64,000 bases of DNA from assembly GCA_029718625.1 (NCBI GenBank), contig CM056378.1, forward strand, positions 61,155,027-61,219,026. Reading direction: 5' to 3'. Of this stretch, positions 6,043-46,187 are shown one piece after another. How positions within the stretch are numbered: position 1 is the first letter of the stretch; each line of letters starts with the position of its first letter. The translations under genes were made by a program, and so were the position numbers. The DNA comes from Synaphobranchus kaupii (lineage: Eukaryota; Chordata; Actinopteri; Anguilliformes; Synaphobranchidae). Below the pieces are notes generated by a model. That model was not told the DNA's origin and did not search any database. It saw only the letters and a list, made by a program, of their open reading frames with translations.

Positions 6043-7679
6043 CAGTCAAGCCGGAAAGTCTGCACACCCCTTTCACCTTCTCCACGTTTTATTACGTTAC
6101 AGACATATTCTACAATAGATTGAGTTCATTTTTTGTCTCAAAATTCTACACAAAATAGCCCATAATGACAAAGTGAAAGGTTTTTAGACATTTGTGCTAA
6201 TTTATTAAAAATCAAAATGTAAAATATCATATGTACACAAGTGTGCACACCCTTTGATATGACACCCAAAAGTGAGCTGAGGTGCATTTTGTTTCCACTG
6301 ATACTGCTTGAGATGTTTCTACAACTTAATTTGAGTCCACCTGTGATAAATTCAATTGATTGGACATGATTGGGGATTGCCAACACCTGCCTATATAAGG
6401 TCCCACAGTTGACAGTGCATGTCAGAGCAAACTCCAAGCCATGGGGTCAAAGGAATTATCTGCAGACCTCAGAAACAGGATTGTGTCAAGGCATAGATCT
6501 GGAGAAGGGTACGGAAAAATCTCTGCAGCTTTACACGTCCCAAAGAGCACAGTGGCCACCATCATTCGTAAATGGAAGAAGTTTGGAACCACCAAGAATC
6601 TTCCTAGACCTGGCCGCCCGGCCAAACTGAGCAATCGGGGAAGACGGGCCTTGGCCAGGGAGGTGAGCAGGAACCCGAGGGTCACTCTGACAGAGCTCCA
6701 GCATATCCTTGTGGAGATGGGAGAACCTTTCAGAAGATCAACCATCCAGGCAGCACTCCACCAATCAGGCCTTTATGGTAGAGTGGCCAGACGGAAGCCC
6801 CTCCTTAGTAAAAGGTACATCACAGCCCGCTTGGAGTTTGCCAAAAGGCACCTAGAGGACTCTCAAACCATGAGAATCAAGATTCTCTGGTCTGATGAAA
6901 CCAAAATTTAACTTTTTGGCCTGAATACCAAGTGTCACATCTGGAGGAAACCAGGCACTGCTCATCACCTGGCTAATACCATCCCTACAGTGAAGCATGG
7001 CGGTGGCAGCATCATGATGTGGGGATGTTTTTCAGCAGCGGGAACGGGGCGACTAGTCCTGATAGAGGGAAAGATGAATGCAGCTAAGTACACCGAGATC
7101 CTTGAAGAAAACCTGCTCCAGAGTGCTCTGGACCACAGACTGGGGCGAAGGTTTACCTTCCAACATGACAACGACCCGAAGCACACAGCCAAGAGAACAA
7201 AGGAGTGGCTTCGGAGAACGTCTGTGCATGTCCTTGAGTGGCCCAGCCAGAGCCCAGACATGAATCCAATTGAACATCTGTGGAAAGAGCTGAAAATGGC
7301 TGTGTACCGACGCTCCCCATCCAACCTGACGGAGCTTGCAAGGATATGCCAAGAGGAATGGGCAAAAATGTCCAGAAACAAGTGTGCCAAGCTCGTAGCT
7401 TCTTTCCCAAGACGCCTTGAAGCTGTAATCGCTGCCAAAGGTGCAGCAACTAAGTATTAGGCTAAGGATGTGTACAGATATGTAACCCCTAAATAACCTA
7501 TTTTTGTCAGTTAAATAAAATTGCATATTTTCTAAAAACCTGTTTTCACTTTGTCATTATTGGCTATTGTGTGTAGATGTTTGAGGCAAACAATGAACTC
7601 AATCTATTGTAGTATAAGTCTGTAACGTAATAAAACGTGGAGAAGGTGAAAGGGGTGTGCAGACTTTCCGGCTTGACTG
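6043..7679 (+). mobile_element. full-length Tc1-like transposon
   Basis: The ends are CAGTCAAGCCGGAAAGTCTG and its inverse, about 95 bp or more per arm, enclosing one DD34E transposase. The right flank is TA (7680-7681); the left flank is TG, so the left target TA has mutated. Length of 1.64 kb is normal for the family. Confidence 0.9.
6441..7460 (+). pseudogene. Tc1-like DD34E transposase with one internal stop
   Basis: The frame runs 339 residues, standard for fish Tc1 transposases, broken only by a TAA at 6909-6911 just after WSDETKI, where the family normally has Glu. Two N-terminal helix-turn-helix regions are readable (SADLRNRIVSRHRSGEGYGK and KSTVATIIRKW), followed by a GRPAKLS hook between them. 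The catalytic triad is intact: D152 in WSDET, D243 in QHDNDPKHT and E278 in [10 protein letters not shown], with the diagnostic 34-residue spacing. The ATG at 6441 gives the expected MGSKELSADL start. It once cut and pasted its own element; the stop inactivates it unless read through. Confidence 0.9.
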
Positions 7680-14298: not shown

Positions 14299-15959
14299 AA
14301 CTCCTCAAAAAAAGTTCGGAAACGTTATTTCGGTCGATTATTCCTCCCCTTTAATAATACCAATTGGTATTGTATTTTATATCACTGGAAAGCCTGATTA
14401 GTCACCTTTACAACGAGGTACAACTTGTAAGGATCATGCATTCGTGGAATGAGCAACACGGCTAACCGTGTGGGTAGCGGCCCAAAAAAATGTGCCAAAA
14501 TCCCCTGCAATATTCTTCTGTTGGTATTCACTCTCGTTTTGAGCTTCAAGTGCTGGCAGGTGTATGCCAGTCACAGGTGTGTGACTGGCACCTGATTGGC
14601 ACCTAATTGACAGCACTTGTGTGCATGGGTCCTGCAACTTTGTTGAGTTTGTGTGTGCTCCAAGCATAAACATGCCACGTTTGTCCCTTCAGGATAATGC
14701 CCGTGCAATAGGGCAAGTGGAAGCTGGTGTTCCAGTACGCAGAGTGGCAGCATTATTTGGTGTCAGCCCTGGTACCATTTCCAAACTTAGGACCAAGTTC
14801 CGTGAGACTGGTGAAGTCAAAGACAGACCACGAAGTGGCCGTCCCAGGAAGACAACACCCCAAGAAGACCGGTTCCTCACCCTTGCTTCACTGAGGAACC
14901 GTAGACTTTCTTCCAGAGATTTACAGGTAAGATCTGCACAACGGTACCACAGACAGATCTCTGATCAGACGGTGAGGAACAGACTGCACATGGCCGGTCT
15001 TCGTGCTTATAAGGCTGCCAGGAAGCCTGCAATGACTGCCCTTCACCGTCAGGCCCGTTTGCGCTGGTGTCGACAGCACCGACAGTGGAACCTAAGAATG
15101 TGGGGCAACGTCATGTTCAGTGATGAATCAAGGTTCTGTCTGCGGAAGCTGGATGGCAGGATCATGGTGTGGGGCGGTATCTCTCTCACAGGCAAAACAG
15201 AACTTGTCATCATTGAAGGCAATCTCAATGCAGTGAGATATCGGAATGAGATTCTGGAGCCAGTGGCGATCCCATATCTACAGAATCTGGGACCTAACTC
15301 CATCCTCCAGGATGACAACGCTCGCCCCCACAGAGCCAGGATCATCACAGAGTACCTCCAGAATTTGGGAGTGGAGAGGATGGAATGGCCTGCCGTGAGT
15401 CCAGACCTCAACCCAATTGAACACCTGTGGGATCAGCTTGGGCGTGCTGTACGTGCCAGAGTGACCAACGCAACCATGTTGGCTGACTTGCAGCAAATCC
15501 TGGTTGAGGAATGGGATGCCATCCCACAGCAGTGTGTGACCAGGCTGGTGACCAGCATGAGGAGGAGGTGCCAAGCTGTTGTGACTGCGTATGGATCTTC
15601 CACACGCTACTGAGGTCCCTGACAGTGTAAAATTAATAAAGTGTAAAAATGGCCAATACGTGTTGTTTTTTTCTTATTACTGTGGGAGAGTGCAATCATC
15701 CAATCCACCAAGCAACTCAAAACGAGAGTGAATACCAACAGAAGAATATTGCAGGGGATTTTGGCACATTTTTTGGGCCGCTACCCACACGGTTAGCTGT
15801 GTTGCTCATTCCACGAATGGATGATCCTTACAAGTTGTACCTCGTTGTAAAGGTGACTAATCAGGCTTTCCAGTGATATAAAATACAATACCAATTGGTA
15901 TTATTAAAGGGGAGGAATAATCGACCGAAATAACGTTTCCGAACTTTTTTTGAGGAGTT
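14299..15959 (+). mobile_element. Tc1-like transposon with ~230-bp terminal inverted repeats
   Basis: The left arm begins AACTCCTCAAAAAAAGTTCG and the right arm is its inverse. The match continues past CCAATTGGTATTG and ACAACGAGGTACAACTTG to TTGGTATTCACTCTCGTTTT, about 230 bp with few differences. The right flank is TA and the left TC, so one target base may have changed. It encloses one open transposase. Confidence 0.85.
14672..15613 (+). CDS. Tc1-like transposase, open but with internal deletion
   Basis: The frame is open from 14621; the likely start is the ATG at 14672 (MPRLSLQDNARAIGQV), giving 313 residues. A paired-type helix-turn-helix (VRRVAALFGVSPGTISKL), a GRPRK hook and the DDE domain are readable. 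The catalytic residues are in MFSDESRF, LQDDNARPH and PDLNPIEHLW, with 34 residues between the last two. The first two are 63 residues apart instead of about 90. The junction LDGRIMVWGG shows that about 27 residues are missing in frame, so it is probably catalytically dead although uninterrupted. Confidence 0.85.
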   Translation: MPRLSLQDNARAIGQVEAGVPVRRVAALFGVSPGTISKLRTKFRETGEVKDRPRSGRPRKTTPQEDRFLTLASLRNRRLSSRDLQVRSAQRYHRQISDQTVRNRLHMAGLRAYKAARKPAMTALHRQARLRWCRQHRQWNLRMWGNVMFSDESRFCLRKLDGRIMVWGGISLTGKTELVIIEGNLNAVRYRNEILEPVAIPYLQNLGPNSILQDDNARPHRARIITEYLQNLGVERMEWPAVSPDLNPIEHLWDQLGRAVRARVTNATMLADLQQILVEEWDAIPQQCVTRLVTSMRRRCQAVVTAYGSSTRY

Positions 15960-20969: not shown

Positions 20970-23499
20970 TAGTGTTGTGTCGTTCGCGAACGATTCGTTC
21001 AAAAGAACGAATCTTTTGGGTGAACGAACTGAACTGAATCACTTACTGAAAAGATCCGTTCATTTCTCAGTTCAGTTCAGTTCACGAACGGATCTGATCA
21101 GCAGCGAGCGTGCACCGTGCAGGGAGGGGGAGGGACTGCCGCGAGCGAACGTGATTCGTCCCTTGCGAACCAGTTCTGCTGTGCTGAACGAATCATTCGC
21201 ATTTGCTTCTTCCTATTCCATTTCGGACGTATTGTTCTAAGTATTGTATAGCCGAAATGAGTACCGTGTTTGCGTGTTGTATACTAGAAAGTTTTTTTTT
21301 CTCTAATTTGTTTCCTAAATTGTTCGAAATAAAGTTTATATTAAAAAAAAAAATTATAAAAAAAATTCACGGGCGGGCAGGCGCCGAGCGAGGCAGCGAG
21401 CGTGCAGAGTGGACTGATTCGTTCACTGCGTGACGTGACGTGATCCTGAGTGATAATCAGCGGCTCAAACTGCCAGAATCAGGCCCAGCAAGTTAAGACT
21501 TAAAAGTCATTGAAAACCAGCGTTCACCTCCAATATTGATATTCAACGAGGAAACTTTTAAAATATCAAGATTTGTAAACGGAGTTTGGCGCATTTGTCA
21601 AAGCGACAGCACTTCCGCATGAACTGTTCGGCCGTCAGTTCACTGAGTGAACGAACTGGGACGTAACGGTGCAAGTTCAGTGATCCGTTCACTGAAGCTA
21701 CTAGACACAGTGAGTTAACGTGACGTGATCCTGAGTGATAATCAGCGGCTCAAACTGCCAGAATCAGGCCCAGCAAGTTAAGACTTAAAAGTCATTGAAA
21801 ACCAGTGTTCACCTCCAATATTGATATTCAACGAGGAAACTTTTAAAATATCAAGATTTGTAAACGGAGTTTGGCGCATTTGTCAAAGCGACAGCACTTC
21901 CGCATGAACTGGTCGGCCGTCAGTTCACTGAGTGAACGAACTGGGACGTAACGGTGCAAGTTCAGTGATCCGTTCACTGAAGCTACTAGACACAGTGAGT
22001 TAACGTGACGTGATCCTGAGTGATAATCAGCGGCTCAAACTGCCAGAATCAGGCCCAGCAAGTTAAGACTTAAAGGTCATTGAAAACCAGCGTTCACCTC
22101 CAATATTGATATTCAACGAGGAAACTTTTAAAATATCAAGATTTGTAAACGGAGTTTGGCGCATTTGTCAAAGCGACAGCACTTCCGCATGAACTGGTCG
22201 GCCGTCAGTTCACTGAGTGAACGAACTGTGACTTAACGGTGCAAGTTCAGTGATCCGTTCACTGAAGCTACTAGACACAGTGAGTTAACGTGACGTGATC
22301 CTGAGTGATAATCAGCGGCTCAAACTGCCAGAATCAGGCCCAGCAAGTTGAGACTTAAAAGTCATTGAAAACCAGCGTTCACCTCCAATATTGATATTCA
22401 ACGAGGAAACTTTTAAAATATCAAGATTTGTAAACGGAGTTTGGCGCATTTGTCAAAGCGACAGCACTTCCGCATGAACTGTTCGGGCCGTCAGTTCACT
22501 GAGTGAACGAACTGGGACGTAACGGTGCAAGTTCAGTGATCCGTTCACTGAAGCTACTAGACACAGTGAGTTAACGTGACGTGATCCTGAGTGATAATCA
22601 GCGGCTCAAACTGCCAGAATCAGGCCCAGCAAGTTAAGACTTAAAAGTCATTGAAAACCAGCGTTCACCTCCAATATTGATATTCAACGAGGAAACTTTT
22701 AAAATATCAAGATTTGTAAACGGAGTTTGGCGCATTTGTCAAAGCGACAGCACTTCCGCATGAACTGGTCGGGCCGTCAGTTCACTGAGTGAACGAACTG
22801 GGACGTAACGGTGCAAGTTCAGTGATCCGTTCACTGAAGCTACTAGACACAGTGAGTTAACGTGACGTGATCCTGAGTGATAATCAGCGGCTCAAACTGC
22901 CAGAATCAGGCCCAGCAAGTTAAGACTTAAAGGTCATTGAAAACCAGCGTTCACCTCCAATATTGATATTCAACGAGGAAACTTTTAAAATATCAAGATT
23001 TGTAAACGGAGTTTGGCGCATTTGTCAAAGCGACAGCACTTCCGCATGAACTGGTCGGCCGTCAGTTCACTGAGTGAACGAACTGTGACTTAACGGTGCA
23101 AGTTCAGTGATCCGTTCACTGAAGCTACTAGACACAGTGAGTTAACGTGACGTGATCCTGAGTGATAATCAGCGGCTCAAACTGCCAGAATCAGGCCCAG
23201 CAAGTTAAGACTTAAAAGTCATTGAAAACCAGCGTTCACCTCCAATATTGATATTCAACGAGGAAACTTTTAAAATATCAAGATTTGTAAACGGAGTTTG
23301 GCGCATTTGTCAAAGCGACAGCACTTCCGCATGAACTGTTCGGCCGTCAGTTCACTGAGTGAGTCGGACTACGCAGTACGCAGTCGGAGCTCCGCCCAAG
23401 CACTGAACGATTCGGTGAACGAATCTTTTGAACGAATCTTTTTAATGAACTGATTCTATTGATTCGTGTCACTGAAGTGAACTGTTTTGCCCATCACTA
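20970..23499. mobile_element. third hAT element, nested in the second
   Basis: The left end is TAGTGTTGTGTCGTTCGCG and the right end, inverted, TAGTGATGGGCAAAACAG. Both lead into GAACGATTCG/GATTCGTTC words. Flanks are identical GTAAATGC (20962-20969, 23500-23507). This is a common fish hAT end type. The interior is mostly a seven-copy tandem repeat and no transposase exists. Confidence 0.85.
21430..23360. repeat. seven-copy 285-286-bp tandem array with higher-order pattern
   Basis: The landmark TGATCCTGAGTGATAATC recurs at 21441, 21726, 22011, 22296, 22582, 22868 and 23153. Copies 3 and 6 share AAAGGTCATT and GTGACTTAACGG. Copies 2 and 5 have GGTCG before GCCG but AAAAGTCATT. Copies 1, 4 and 7 have GTTCG. 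The variants therefore repeat with a period of three units (about 856 bp). Each unit contains TTCACTGAGTGAACGAACTG, echoing the hAT end motifs. Confidence 0.9.
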
Positions 23500-29068: not shown

Positions 29069-30599
29069 CACTACTCACAAAAAGTTAGGGATATTCGGCT
29101 TTCGGGTGAAATTTCAGGATGAACCTAAAATGCACTATAACCTTTACAGGTGAAATTAATTTGACCTTCTCTAAACTTTTGAATGCACATGTCCAACTAT
29201 TCAATGTTTCAGTACTTTTTGCACAACTTGCTGTTCTCTAACAAGGAGCTGAACGGCAAAATTCACAACAGGTGTTTGATCCATGAATCGACTAATAAAT
29301 GTCCTGGTTCAATTAGAATTGGTATTTAAACAGTCCTCTTCATCATGCTGTTCACATTTTGACATCATGAGACCAAGACGACACCTAACAATTGATCAAC
29401 AGTACCTCGCCATTGCGAGGCTTCAAACAGGATGTTCTCAGAGGGAAGTGGCCACTGAGCTTAGAGTGTCACAGAGTGTCATCAGCAGGTTGCAACAGAG
29501 ATACAGAGAGACTGGAAGAGTCACAGAAAGGCATAGAAGTGGACGTCCTTTGGCCACATCCCACACTGATGACCGCTTCATTGTGAACAGTGCCCTGCGG
29601 AACCGGATGATGAATGCCACTCAACTCCAGGCACATTTAAGGGAGGTGAGAGGCACCCAAGTGTCACGTCAGACCATTCGAAACCGTTTACATCAGCGTG
29701 GTCTGCGTGCTAGACGACCTGCAAGGGTACCTGACCACACCACCAGGCACAGGCGTCATCGTCTTGCATGGGCCAGGGAGCATTTACGCTGGACGAGGGA
29801 CCAGTGGGCCTCAGTGCTGTTCTCTGATGAAAGTCGATTCACGTTGAGCAGAAATGATGGCCACCAACGATGTTGGAGACGTCAAGGAGAGCGCTATGCA
29901 TCAGCCACTGTTGTCACCAGACGACCCTTTGGTGGTGGCGGTGTTACAGTGTGGGCAGGTGTGTCTAGTCAATACAGAACTGCCCTACACTTTGTGAATG
30001 GTACAGTGACAAGCCCATACTACCTGAATAACATCATTAATCCAGTCATTGTGCCCCTGCATGAACAACACAGGCCTAATTTCATCTTCATGGACGACAA
30101 TGCTCCAGCTCATCGAGGTCGCATCATTAGGGAAAGGCTGCTGGAGACTGGGGTACCTCAAATGGAGTGGCCTGCACTTTCTCCAGACCTGAATCCCATA
30201 GAAAACCTATGGGATCAGCTGACTCACCGTGTAGAGGCTCGTAACTCTGTACCCTAGAACCTCAATGACCTGAGGGCCGCCCTTCAAGAAGAGTGGGATG
30301 CCATGCCTCAGCAGACAATAAGTCGACTTGTGAACAGCATGAGACGTCGTTGTCAAGCTGTAATTGATGCTCAAGGGCACATGACAAGTTATTGAGACAT
30401 TGACATTTTTGTTGTGGTATACCCACCACTGTTGTTGGCTTTTGTTTCAATAAATTGTTTGAGATGAGGAAATCACCATTGCATGCTTCTACTTAAATGC
30501 CCTACTTTCATGATACGTATAGTATCACTGTAGCGTGAACTTACATTTTCCATAAATTTCACCCGAAAGCCAAATATCCCTAACTTTTTGTGAGTAGTG
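29069..30599 (+). mobile_element. nearly intact Tc1-like transposon
   Basis: Ends CACTACTCACAAAAAGTTAG, then GGATATTCGGCTTTCGGGTG, and the inverse (one mismatch seen in about 40 bp), flanked by TA (29067-29068, 30600-30601). High end identity and a transposase with a single stop suggest recent activity. It lies inside the left arm of the hAT at 28999. Confidence 0.92.
29367..30395 (+). pseudogene. Tc1-like DD34E transposase with one late stop
   Basis: Starts [20 protein letters not shown] and reaches ...AVIDAQGHMTSY at 30395, 343 codons. Helix-turn-helix ([20 protein letters not shown]), a GRP hook, [15 protein letters not shown] and [10 protein letters not shown] are all present with DD34E spacing. 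The only defect is a TAG after RNSVP (30255-30257) with about 45 codons remaining; a CAG-to-TAG change would explain it. An upstream in-frame ATG (29283) adds 28 non-conserved residues, so I prefer 29367. Confidence 0.9.
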
Positions 30600-36386: not shown

Positions 36387-36963
36387 CACTTTCACAGTTT
36401 TTGTAGTAGGTAGACAGCCTCTGATGCATGTAAATGCAACGAGGCAATTTTAAACAGCTTCTGATAGGCGGATTAAAGGTGGTCGTCCAATGAAGAGAAT
36501 TATTCTTTGAGGGTATGTAGGCAGGAAAAATAAGTTTGGGGCTTTATTGTGTGAAATTGTATCTGAATGCTGTGTGGTTACATGAGGTCAGAACGTACAG
36601 AGGTTAAAGGAGCACAGTCACGCTTGTTTCAGTTGAGAATATTTGGATTAAATGCTTAAATTCTGTGTGTAGGCCTTTTTAAAATCAACGTCAGTGCAGC
36701 CGTTTCCTATTTATGGGAAATACGGCAGCAAAACTTCAAAGGGCAAACACGTCCAGTGACGTCACTGGACGTGTTTGGCTTGAATCTCCAGCCAGTGTTT
36801 ACCAGAAGGTAGCGGGCGCTCAAACTCCATCCTTGAACGCAGAGACTGGTTTATGGGCGGGCACCCATCCAGGCGATCACATGACACTCCCACGAAAATA
36901 CGGTAACGTTAGCGTACAAATATCACGTGGCCTATCTTGGCCGACGACGATAGCCTGAGAGAT

Positions 36964-37376
36964 ATGGCGGAGTTCGCCGAGTTAGAGGACGATCTTTTCG
37001 ATTTTGACGAAGAAATACAACCTTACAGTTTTGAACCAGAATTTACAGAGGAAGAATTGCGTGAGCGAGAGAGACAGAGAGCGGAGGACGAGTCAGCCCA
37101 AGCTAACAGAGAGCAGAGAAGTGGGAACATAAATTGGTGCCAGTGTGGGAACTGTGAACCCGTGCCTACCGAGACGGAGAGCCTTTGCTGCCGCGAATGG
37201 GATCGAGGGCAACGGCTGTTGGCAGAAACCGAACACGGAGTTTGCATCACTGCCAATAATAACTTCGAACCCTTGCTACATCCTGCAGTACTTACCAACT
37301 TCTTATGCAGCAATAGGAGGATTAATTGGAAGAAGTATCCACAACCAAGGGGTCCAGGAATGCAACTAAGCGACGA
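36964..37376 (+). CDS. P2X7 ballast-domain-like protein, exon 1
   Basis: From ATG 36964 (MAEFAELEDDLFDFDEE) the acidic N-terminus leads to YSFEPEFTEEELRER (21-35), a charged helix, then WCQCGNCEPVPTETESLCC (58-76), and later HPAVLTNFLC. W-C-x-C-G-x-C...CC is the zinc-binding core of the P2X7 C-terminal ballast, also known as stand-alone fish proteins. The exon ends at GA|GTGAGT (donor 37377). Without splicing the frame would stop two bases later. Joined to exon 2, the protein is 194 residues with no defect. It lies wholly inside the TTAA element and probably uses a promoter there. Function as a separate protein is unknown. Confidence 0.75.
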
Positions 37377-37647
37377 GTGAGTAAATATCTAGCTAACAAG
37401 CTGTATCAAAATCTTGTAATTTAGCTAACGTTTGCTAAACTTATGTTAAAGTCGATATGTTGTGCTTGCCAGCATGACACCAAGATTCAGACATTCCATG
37501 TAACGTCAGTTAGGCTACTGTCGGAATCAGTCGCTTGTTGGCTATACCTAGATGGCTATCTAGCAGCTCATTTAGCATCCTTTGTGCAACAACAGATATT
37601 ACATTACTATAACCAGTTTTTTCTGTCACCCCTTTATTTAACGTTAG

Positions 37648-37819
37648 GCAATTCAGACTGACCGCTTATCGTTGGCTATTGGAATGGGTACTTCATGGCG
37701 AACGACTGGGGAGAGGTGTAAGAGTTGTGCTACCATCGTGTGTAGTCTCTGCAGTACGTCAAAGATACCCTGCTCCCGATGGTCAATATGTTGGATTTCT
37801 GGACAAGCAAATTCTTTGA
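37648..37819 (+). CDS. P2X7 ballast-domain-like protein, exon 2
   Basis: After a pyrimidine-rich tract and TTAACGTTAG acceptor, the frame restores E138 and reads QFRLTAYRWLLEWVLHGERL, then VRVVLPSCVVSAVRQRYP and GQYVGFLDKQIL, ending at TGA 37817-37819. This matches the second half of the ballast domain (YR-W...G-LG...PSCVV--IR--FP---G-Y-GF). Phase fits exon 1 exactly across a 271-bp intron. The end of the exon overlaps the antisense THAP ORF. Confidence 0.75.
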
Positions 37820-38035
37820 TTTAGTTCCCAGTAATTCGGCACTATAGTCGCATTGAAATTCCTCTGGCTTGAAGTGTTTCGAACAAACACAAACTTTGTT
37901 GTAATCTTTTTTTGGCAAATTTAACAGATAGATCGGGTTGTTAATTGCTGCCAGCCACTGGATGCACCTCGTCTCATTTTTGGGCAAACAGTATCCTGAC
38001 TTAATATCGCACCCACGTACGGCGCATGATGGCAT
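37730..38035 (-). CDS. THAP-like zinc-finger ORF, antisense to ballast exon 2
   Basis: Starts at 38035 with MPSCAVRGCDIKSGYCLP. It has the C-x4-C pair, a W at residue 27, and VCSKHFKPEEF giving the C-x2-H-F of a C2CH THAP finger, followed by SNILTIGS at the place of the usual AVPTI. The 101-codon frame then stops. THAP fingers give DNA binding to P, Kolobok and related transposases. The rest of a transposase is missing, or a donor near 37775 leads to a lost exon. It converges on and overlaps the plus-strand exon. Confidence 0.6.
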   Translation of the reverse strand: MPSCAVRGCDIKSGYCLPKNETRCIQWLAAINNPIYLLNLPKKDYNKVCVCSKHFKPEEFQCDYSAELLGTKSKNLLVQKSNILTIGSRVSLTYCRDYTRW

Positions 38036-38624
38036 TTTGGGCAGACACGCAAGAATTTTCTGTGGTATCTTGAACAGTTAGCTTGTCACCGTGCTGGCAG
38101 CAGTGGCGTGTACGCCCCTATTACATATTCATGTACACCAAACCTAAGCGTGCGCAGGGAGATATGGGAAATGAGGTAAATAAGGCTGGAGCTGCTCTGG
38201 AGATGGAGCTGTTCTTGAGGGCCCATATCTCAAAAACTACAAATCCAATCTTTATGATTTTTTGGAAAATATTAAACATTAAATAGTAGATTAGAATGCA
38301 GAAAACATGCATATGCCTGACTGTGCTCCTTTAATGTTTTTAAGGGCTGAGAGTCTGTGATCACTTCTGTAGGAAACCCTGAAACATGCCAAACTCTCAG
38401 TGCTGTATGGGTATGGGGCATGCCCCGCCAAGCTGTAACTTGGTGGATGACATACCTGCCATCCCAATCTCTGCTTTAAATCTCTGGCGAAAACACAGAC
38501 CGTAGAGTTTTCCATTCAAGACCCAGTCACTATGGCACTGCAGTCAAACATTTTCAGAATGCATAAAAAAAAAGTATACAAAAATAAACTAGGCTATAGG
38601 CTAATAGTTTTCAAACATAGCGAC

Positions 38625-41861: not shown

Positions 41862-44298
41862 TAAGGCTGAGACCACTTATCGATTTGTTGATAATTATCG
41901 ATAACGGTGTGAAATCGATAAGTGGCGTCACTTATCGATTTTTTTTGCATGTGTAAAAAAATAAATAAATACTTTTTTCTATTAAAAAAAAAACGTTAGT
42001 GCGCGTGCGTGTGTGCGCGCGCGTGTGTGTCACGTGCACTCACTGTAGTTTTTGCAATGCTGTAGTTGGCCCACGACAGTGAGTCGTGCTGAGCGCGCTG
42101 CCAGTAGCGATCAGGAAGATGCCGTCTGAAGTGTGGCAACATTTCGAGAAGTTGGAGGGCAATAAATGTGTCGTTTGCAACGTATGTAAAGCGAAACTAC
42201 CGTTTTCAGGTAACACTACCAATTTACGCGATCATTTGAAAAGATGGCATTCTTCGTTGTTCTCCGCCTCCTCCACAAGTAAGGTCCAGCAAGAAGTCCC
42301 ACGTTATTTTGCGAAAAAAGTCGACCCAAGTCGAGCTAAAGAAATCACAAACAAAATTGTGGATGTTGTGGTGGATGGGTTACCTATTAGCATAGTCGAG
42401 AAAGAGTCATTTAAAACATTAATCACAAACATCGCCCCAGGCTACCAGCTGCCGTGTAGAAAGACTGTCGAAAATACTGAGCGAAAGACATGTGGCTGGA
42501 AAACGGGAGCTTACGCAGAAATTGACAGAATGCGGTTCTCTGTCAATCACCACGGATGCGTGGACAAGTCTATGCCAAGAAGCATATCTGGCAGTTACGT
42601 GTCACCATGTCGGACCAGACTGGAAATTGAAAACCAACCTCTTGGCAACAAGACCGCTAACAGAACGGCACACCGCTGTTAATTTGGCGGAGGAAATAAA
42701 CGCTACAGTTGCGGAGTATGATTTAAGTTCCAAGCTGGTAGCATGCGTCCACGACAATGCAGCCAACGTATGTCGGGCCATGCCATTACTCAAAGGTGCT
42801 GGACATACAGGTCAGGGTGGCGTTTTTTCTGTGAACTGTGCGGGACATACACTCAATCTTTGCAGTCAGCATGGTTTGGAGGGTGTGCGAGCTGTTAATA
42901 CAGCAGTGGCTGCAGCGAGACGGCTGGTGGGACATTTAAAAAAAAGTGAACTGGCGACCACAGCTTTAAAGCAAAAGCAATGCGAAATGCTAAACACACA
43001 AACCCCACTGAAATTGATTCAGGATGTATCCACTAGATGGAACACGGTGTACTACATGATGGAGCGACTTATTGAGGTGCGATGGCCAGTGGTTGCAGTG
43101 TTGTCAAACCCAGATGTTACAAATAAATCACACGCTGCTACCTTGGAGATGACAACAGAGCAATGGAACTTAATGACTGAAGTGAGTCCACTATTGAAGC
43201 CATTTGAATTGGCTACTGTGCTTCTTAGCTCAGAGAAGGGTGCCACGTCAAGCTGTGTGCTCCCTGTTGTAATAGGGATCAGAGAGCGCCTGAAAAATAC
43301 GGGCGAAGAGGATGACGATGCACTGAGCAATGCAGCCCAGAATGTGCGAAAGGGTCTTCTCGACAATCTCATCAGTCGTTTCGGACTAGATCAGCTAGAC
43401 CCTCCCGATGAAACGCTGATGCCACTGCTCATCGCGTCATTCATCGACCCAAGGTTCAGAAGCCTCGACTTTCTCACAGCCGAGGGGAGAGCCAGTGTAG
43501 CATCAGCTGCGAAGAGAACCTGTCTGCAGCATCCAGCGGTCATCGAGGAGGCAGAGGAGCAACGCGACCAGCCAGCAGAGCCAGAAAAGAAAAAGTCCAA
43601 AACGGAGGAGGCGTTGGGTCTCCTGTGTCGTCGTCAGACACATCATGGATCGCAGCGCTCCCAAGACGAAAACATCCAGCGTGAAATAGCTGCTTTCTCC
43701 GCGGAGCCAGCTATCGATGTCGACGCTGATCCACTGATGTGGTGGAAAGGGAACGCAGAGCGCTTCCCGAAGCTCGCACACCTGGCACGAATGTTTTTAA
43801 GCATTCCAGCCACGTCTGTCCCTTCCGAAAGGGTATTCAGCAAGGCAGGGCAGGTTGTGAACAAATTCAGGTCCTGTCTTAAACCTAAGAATGTGGACGC
43901 AATTCTGTTTCTGAACAAAAACAAAGAGTAGTTGTGGATATAACAGTGACATTCAGTTTTTTATTTTTTTATTTACTTAAAAAGCGACTATTTAAGAAAG
44001 CTGTTGTCATGTCCGCTGAGTTTATGTTTGATTGTAGCCTATAGGCTAATAATAATCTCATTTTCTTTTCTATGATAGGCCTAACCATGAAGCAATTAAC
44101 AAAGCTGTTTACTGTTTAGTTTCACGTGTTTAGTCGTGGCTCTTTGCTCTCTGGTGAAAATGAGAACTACATTGTGAATACTGAAGTGCTGAAAATGCGT
44201 TCTGTTTTCAATTAAAATAATAATTAAAAAATCGATATTTATCGATAATTTTGTCCCGATTTATTGATTCTTCAAAATGGCATATCGTCTCAGCCTTA
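41862..44298 (+). mobile_element. hAT element with BED-type transposase
   Basis: Ends TAAGGCTGAGAC and inverse, with identical 8-bp flanks AAAAATAC (41854-41861, 44299-44306). ATCGATA-rich subterminal repeats lie at both ends. At 2,437 bp it holds one long single-exon transposase, so it is close to full length. Confidence 0.92.
42119..43931 (+). pseudogene. hAT transposase (ZBED-like) with one frameshift
   Basis: From ATG 42119: BED finger MPSEVWQHFEKLEGNKCVVC ... NLRDHLKRWH, then a linker. Near 42468-42478 the frame shifts; the next frame continues KILSERHVAGKRELTQKL (upstream of its first Met), SITTDAWTS, VHDNAANV, NCAGHTLNL and STRWNT. The C-terminal dimerisation region (WWKGNAERFPKLAHLARMFL ... 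SIPATSVPSERVFSKAG) is complete to LNKNKE at 43931. Length near 600 codons is normal. The TTDAW and HDNA acidic residues needed for catalysis remain; one small indel separates the two halves. Confidence 0.9.
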
Positions 44299-45954: not shown

Positions 45955-46187
45955 TATTCAATATATAAATGCAGGGGTACCAATAATTGTGGCCAATGTG
46001 GTTTTGTTAAAAATAATTATTTCTTGATGAGGGATTTTTTTTTCCTCATAATAAATTAACGTCAATTAAAGGTTGGATTTTTCTCATTTTTTCAGTGTGA
46101 GATTAAGCTAATTCACCAAACTGAGAATTTTTTATAACCCTTTTTACTCATTTTTACCAGGGGTACCAACAAATCTGAGCACGTCTG
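45955..46187 (+). mobile_element. right-end fragment of another Tc1-like family
   Basis: Contains GGGGTACCAATAATTGTGGC and ends GTACCAACAAATCTGAGCAC then GTCTG before TA, typical of fish Tc1 elements with CAGACGTGCTC ends. The left end and the transposase are absent. It abuts the foldback fragment. Confidence 0.65.

What the first reader, a model, noticed from the sequence alone, without database searches (positions are those of the whole stretch)
36608..38330. A TTAA transposon carrying an intact P2X7-ballast gene and an antisense THAP gene
The sequence shows 13-bp perfect inverted ends AGGAGCACAGTCA between TTAA duplications. Inside are two exons that join in phase into a 194-residue protein with the W-C-x-C-G-x-C...CC core and the PSCVV--VR--YP---GQYVGF end of the P2X7 ballast. 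A THAP-like ORF lies on the other strand. Ballast domains are known as stand-alone fish proteins as well as the P2X7 tail. I infer that Kolobok-like elements move them and could have supplied the P2X7 tail.
Basis: partly seen in the sequence, partly recalled or inferred. Interest (0 to 1): 0.9.

Follow-up and report, generated by a model that had tools for sequence, protein, structure and literature searches.

The report
Deleted Kolobok transposon carrying P2X7-like gene
This is one of many copies, in what is likely a fish genome, of a jumping gene that inserts at TTAA sites and carries a gene related to the tail of the immune receptor P2X7; it keeps only a DNA-binding stub of what was likely its own transposase gene and is likely moved by an enzyme made elsewhere, and the idea that such elements gave P2X7 its tail was already published in 2022.

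Summary
The window holds a 1,723-bp element with perfect 13-bp inverted ends between TTAA duplications. It carries a two-exon, 194-codon P2X7-ballast gene (Pfam P2RX7_C, E 2.7e-18) and an antisense THAP frame (E 4.7e-8). The 1.5-Gb genome holds 418 exact TTAA+end matches, against 0 for the reversed control. All 40 loci that I examined beside such ends (20 pairs, 20 single ends) carry the element. Repeat copies lacking the insert show a single TTAA. Two corrections. First, the copy is a deletion derivative: longer sister copies show that the window type joins two sides at a 4-bp repeat, which changed the last few residues of the ballast protein and cut the THAP domain. No DDE transposase was recognised in it. 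Second, the idea is not new: Kojima and Bao (2022, PMC9587614) reported that the KolX protein of Kol0-lineage Kolobok transposons is the P2X7 ballast and concluded that P2X7 arose by fusion with it. THAP transposases, TTAA targets and AG ends are published Kolobok features (PMC6004289). I file it as a non-autonomous Kolobok, probably Kol0: a new member of a known kind. The autonomous partner was not found.

The parts
36604..36607 (.). left TTAA target-site duplication
   Evidence: empty paralogous sites with one TTAA
36608..36620 (+). left 13-bp terminal inverted repeat AGGAGCACAGTCA
   Evidence: genome count
36711..36807 (.). imperfect palindrome of about 95 bp, with a perfect 34-bp core at 36744-36777 that holds TGACGTCA; the same hairpin is predicted in 7 of 11 short copies by my reading
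36964..37376 (+). KolX / P2X7-ballast gene, exon 1 (ATG to donor)
37377..37647 (+). intron, GT-AG, phase 2 (predicted; no transcript seen)
37648..37819 (+). KolX / P2X7-ballast gene, exon 2 with TGA stop
37802..37805 (.). GACA at the internal-deletion junction; longer sister copies have about 390-490 bp more here
37730..38035 (-). THAP stub frame (101 codons from ATG, plus stop; codons left of about 37806 are antisense KolX sequence)
38318..38330 (-). right 13-bp terminal inverted repeat
38331..38334 (.). right TTAA target-site duplication

Best explanation
It is a non-autonomous deletion derivative of a Kolobok-superfamily DNA transposon, probably of the Kol0 lineage, which inserted at TTAA sites in many places of the genome and was likely mobilised in trans by a THAP-DDE transposase made by a fuller copy. 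Shown: TTAA duplication, shared AGGAG... ends, hundreds of end matches, paralogous empty sites, a KolX (ballast) gene, a THAP stub on the other strand, and no frame long enough for a DDE domain. Inferred: the parent element carried KolX and the THAP-DDE transposase tail to tail; internal deletions removed the transposase downstream of its THAP domain, first giving a form of about 2.1-2.2 kb and then, through a 4-bp GACA repeat, the 1.7 kb form seen here; the ends remained good substrates, so the short forms spread. The role of KolX in transposition is unknown. It is apparently not needed in cis, since a subfamily lacking part of KolX amplified too. I think a zinc-bound accessory or regulatory factor most likely.
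For: Ends and TTAA. 418 exact end matches in the genome, 0 for the reversed control. All 20 fetched end pairs and all 20 fetched single ends carry element sequence. Empty sites: the window's insertion against repeat copies in L046 and L047, and L012's insertion against the window itself at 46056-46172 and against L037, with one TTAA each. P2RX7_C and THAP matches. The window protein and three database relatives share all seven cysteines; 30 related proteins keep them (six invariant, one at 90% or more). An AlphaFold model of the relative P0001 has P2X7 as its top three Foldseek matches (prob 1.00, TMq 0.32-0.43, but E 0.02-0.1). Longer sisters L012, L016/L017, L028 and L038 have about 390-490 bp more at the junction; in the three printed (L012, L016, L028) KolX ends ...GFLDIDED or ...GFLDIDIDED, and THAP runs on to ...LLVESAVP. 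Published traits: Kolobok has TTAA and 5'-RR ends, and KolX is the ballast (PMC9587614); Kolobok transposases carry THAP, and T2-MITEs end in AGGRR (PMC6004289).
Against: No DDE transposase was found with these ends. None of the 150 scored THAP matches (of 362 candidates) lies in an open frame longer than 201 residues, so the autonomous partner is assumed, not seen. The Kol0 lineage is defined on transposase phylogeny, which could not be tested. The empty-site comparison with L044 has TGAA instead of TTAA, and L027 against L030 has a gap beside the site.
Confidence: 0.93

Rival explanations
1. The pair of genes is a selected unit: short elements keep KolX and a THAP-only protein because one or both act in trans, for example the THAP stub as a competitive repressor of the transposase at the ends.
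For: THAP is unbroken in 22 of 36 rows where it is covered at 90% or more; KolX is unbroken in 7 of 19 rows with both exons covered. Pairwise pN/pS is 0.42 for KolX exon 1 and 0.60 for THAP. Loss of catalysis with retention of DNA binding is published for domesticated Xenopus Kolobok transposases, where repression was suggested (PMC6004289, passages).
Against: pN/pS is 0.995 for KolX exon 2. Two of the 7 unbroken KolX copies, L038 and L043, have lost one of the seven cysteines. In the 21 rows, breaks per base are about the same in both genes (my estimate). A subfamily without the end of KolX exon 1 amplified too (11 of 20 single-end loci). Constraint in the fuller parent would give the same pN/pS signal.
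Confidence: 0.12
2. It is a domesticated, single-copy host ballast gene (nanor-like) that happens to lie beside TTAA repeats.
For: The window copy has an open KolX gene with good splice sites. Nanor is a known ballast-only fish gene (PMC7016195, passages).
Against: Many insertions with the same ends at different flanks, empty sites, and mostly broken copies.
Confidence: 0.02
3. It is a piggyBac element, which also uses TTAA; the 2022 paper notes that a few piggyBac families encode a KolX-like protein.
For: TTAA target; the paper's remark.
Against: The ends are 5'-AG...CT-3', the published Kolobok type (5'-RR). The paper says the piggyBac-borne versions lack most of the seven cysteines, and this one keeps all seven. 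A THAP domain fits Kolobok.
Confidence: 0.04

Closest known systems
Kol0-lineage Kolobok transposons (Kolobok-1_XT type), PMC9587614
   Same: TTAA duplication, 5'-RR ends, a KolX gene that is the P2X7 ballast
   Different: the copies seen here keep only a THAP stub and show no DDE transposase; the lineage could not be placed on a transposase tree
Xenopus XKol elements and T2-MITEs, PMC6004289
   Same: TTAA, AG/AGGRR ends, THAP as part of the transposase, non-autonomous short forms
   Different: the full XKol copies in its Table 5 are 6.8-13.9 kb with a transposase; its main text has 0 hits for 'P2X'
P2X7 ballast exon and nanor genes of fish, PMC7016195
   Same: zinc-cysteine ballast domain
   Different: host genes, not described as transposon-borne there; in P2X7 the ballast lies in one exon (exon 13), whereas here it is split by a predicted phase-2 intron

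Membership tests
Kolobok superfamily | TTAA 4-bp target-site duplication | tested here: met
   paralogous empty sites
Kolobok superfamily | termini 5'-RR ... YY-3' (AG, AGGRR in T2-MITEs) | tested here: met
   AGGAG...CTCCT; definition
Kolobok superfamily | DDD/E transposase with C/DxxH signature | tested here: not met
   absent from this copy as far as tested: longest frame in the element is 155 codons, 10 further frames show no transposase match in Pfam at E up to 1, and no open frame above 201 residues adjoins the 150 scored THAP matches; so it is filed only as a non-autonomous derivative
Kolobok superfamily | N-terminal THAP domain of the transposase | tested here: met
   partial: Pfam THAP profile 1-62 of 87; reads on to SAVP in longer sisters; that it belonged to a transposase is inferred
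Kol0 lineage | encodes KolX with ballast fold and seven cysteines | tested here: met
   (P2RX7_C), cysteines; model of a relative
Kol0 lineage | position in the DDE transposase phylogeny | not testable with these tools
   no transposase of this family in hand
piggyBac | 5'-CC-type ends (recalled) | tested here: not met
   ends are AG
piggyBac | piggyBac transposase | tested here: not met
   no Pfam transposase match in the 12 frames scanned; an autonomous partner was not found, so this says little about the family as a whole

The most novel reading that the evidence does not exclude
The short elements are two-gene regulatory satellites: they dropped the enzyme but keep a ballast protein and a THAP-only DNA-binding protein, which together steer or silence the transposase of the parent. 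KolX would then show the original function of the P2X7 tail: a zinc switch that works with a THAP transposase.
Probability: 0.08. Interest if true: 0.6.

Novelty: new member of a known kind. Interest (0 to 1): 0.3.

Why it matters
It gives a clear genomic case (ends, duplications, empty sites, hundreds of end matches) in line with the published claim that P2X7's cytoplasmic tail descends from a transposon protein. It also offers a family in which the unknown job of KolX could be tested. The evolutionary idea itself is not new.

Tried and rejected
Autonomous partner: not found. The THAP search of the genome scored 150 of 362 candidates, identity 82-100%, longest open frame 201 residues. The 10-kb stretches beside 20 single ends showed the same family and nested inserts, but only three whole stretches (L029, L040, L048) and six inserts were looked through for frames, by eye; I recognised no Kolobok transposase there, and that is not a full search. 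The KolX protein search of the genome and a count of the deletion junction did not complete.

KolX-type protein in prokaryote and virus contigs: none confirmed among 80 stretches (perhaps a capped list), 17 and 4 that matched a pattern. The 17-bp end in virus contigs: 0.

Selection: pN/pS 0.42 (KolX exon 1, 20 rows), 0.995 (exon 2 up to the junction, 26 rows), 0.60 (THAP, 36 rows); inconclusive. Rows at or below 90% coverage were dropped there.

Other frames of the element against Pfam: 10 frames, nothing but one sub-threshold match (E 0.29). The TIR alone inside the window is not significant (expected 1.45 at up to 2 mismatches). A tree of KolX against P2X7 ballast was considered and not made, for lack of full P2X7 and outgroup sequences.

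Full report
What is there. At 36608-38330 lies a 1,723-bp element with perfect 13-bp inverted ends between TTAA copies. On the plus strand a two-exon gene (36964-37376, 37648-37819) gives 194 residues. The intron is GT-AG and phase 2. The protein matches Pfam P2RX7_C at E 2.7e-18 and P2X7 chains of the PDB at 1.7e-5 and weaker (4 distinct sequences, all P2X7). On the minus strand a THAP frame starts at 38035 and matches the first 62 of 87 positions of Pfam THAP at E 4.7e-8. Ten other frames of the element show no transposase or other significant Pfam match.

It is a family. The window lies in a 1.5-Gb genome in 94 contigs, on contig C3. TTAA plus the 13-bp end occurs 194 times forward and 224 times reverse, and 0 times for the reversed pattern. 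Only the first 100 places are listed. All 20 carry the element. The longest matching piece per copy is 83.8 to 96.5% identical to the window, and the copies are 626 to 4,417 bp from outer TTAA to outer TTAA. I also fetched 20 single ends with about 10 kb each; all 20 adjoin element sequence, some only a part of it. L016 and L017 share the same flanks and count as one insertion. The eight loci L001-L008 cover places that L009-L011 and L029-L031 cover again, and were left out of these counts.

It moved. Joined flanks of 21 rows (20 pairs and the window) were compared with all sequence in hand; three insertions (window, L012, L027) had matches spanning the joint, and six of the comparisons were printed. 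The window's own insertion sits in a repeat whose other copies in L046 and L047 have a single TTAA at the same place. L012's insertion has empty counterparts in the window at 46056-46172 and in L037, also with one TTAA. The L044 counterpart of the window's site reads TGAA, and L030 against L027 has a gap beside the site.

It is a deletion derivative. Longer sisters (L012, L016/L017, L028, L038) have about 390-490 bp more between KolX and THAP. In the three printed (L012, L016, L028) KolX ends ...GFLDIDED or ...GFLDIDIDED, and THAP reads on to ...LLVESAVP before a stop. The window type joins the two sides at GACA (37802-37805), which gives KolX the end ...GFLDKQIL and cuts THAP short. A second subfamily, 11 of the 20 single-end loci, lacks element positions 544-810, and several of its members carry about 1.2 kb inserted in exon 2. 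I saw no DDE domain in any form. The longest open frame around the 150 scored THAP matches is 201 residues.

State of the genes. In 41 rows (40 loci and the window), 19 have both KolX exons at 90% coverage or more, and 7 of these have no frameshift or stop, the window among them. One of the 7, L043, lacks the aligned ATG, and L038 and L043 have each lost one of the seven cysteines. THAP is covered in 36 rows and unbroken in 22. Eighteen rows have both genes covered. Eleven short copies differ by 3.3% on average (K2P, range 2.4-4.0%), which suggests one burst; with recalled fish neutral rates this would be some millions of years.

Relatives. The protein search finds ballast proteins of similar size in many fish, often named 'P2X purinoceptor 7-like' or uncharacterized, and in unnamed metagenome contigs (6 hits with the single sequence; 150 with the alignment, of which 120 are listed). 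Thirty of them, 29 with a fish name, keep seven cysteines when aligned, six invariant and one at 90% or more. Whether these are transposon-borne was not tested. The AlphaFold model of P0001 (pLDDT 74) has P2X7 chains as its first three PDB matches, prob 1.00, TMq 0.32-0.43, though E is 0.02 to 0.1. P0006 enters the homologous second exon through residues that fit an intron end at the same place and phase; this is my reading, not a test.

What is known. PMC9587614 (abstract, Background section and passages seen) defines Kolobok by TTAA and 5'-RR ends. It says Kol0 elements encode a transposase and KolX, reports that KolX is similar to the P2X7 ballast, notes that it had not been pointed out that such proteins are part of Kolobok, and concludes that P2X7 arose by fusion with KolX. 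PMC6004289 (passages) gives THAP, DDE and H2CH as usual motifs of Kolobok transposases, and AG ends with TTAA for full Xenopus elements. [quoted passage not shown] Library searches for 'KolX' and for 'P2X7' with 'Kolobok' returned 1 and 2 papers.

Verdict. The copy is a non-autonomous Kolobok, probably Kol0. What may be new is only this family: its deletion forms, its THAP stub, its palindrome and its empty sites. I did not check it against Repbase.

Noticed in passing
36711-36807 (core 36744-36777): A palindrome of about 95 bp with a perfect 34-bp core holding the CRE-like TGACGTCA (motif recalled), upstream of KolX. By eye 7 of 11 short copies fold into the same hairpin (RNA parameters); DNA fold z -6.0 for 36725-36800 of the window.
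   Followed up: partly
46056-46172: A repeat copy that is the empty counterpart of the L012 insertion site (94% identical, one TTAA).
   Followed up: yes
6399-7460, 14585-15613, 29280-30257: Tc1/mariner-like transposase frames, recognised by eye; the window is rich in DNA transposons.
   Followed up: no
42083-43931: A hAT/ZBED-like transposase in two overlapping frames, recognised by eye.
   Followed up: no
21433-23362: A tandem array of a 285-bp unit, 6.8 copies, 98% matches.
   Followed up: no
L032, L035, L042, L045 (and a longer related insert in L034): A shared insert of about 1.2 kb near element position 1118 in KolX exon 2, with inverted ends of its own in most, which seems to have spread with the host element. 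L039 has a different insert there.
   Followed up: partly
G000 C2:67011226, 67021991, 67032756, 67043514: Four end matches in the same direction about 10.76 kb apart, which suggests a tandem duplication carrying the element.
   Followed up: no
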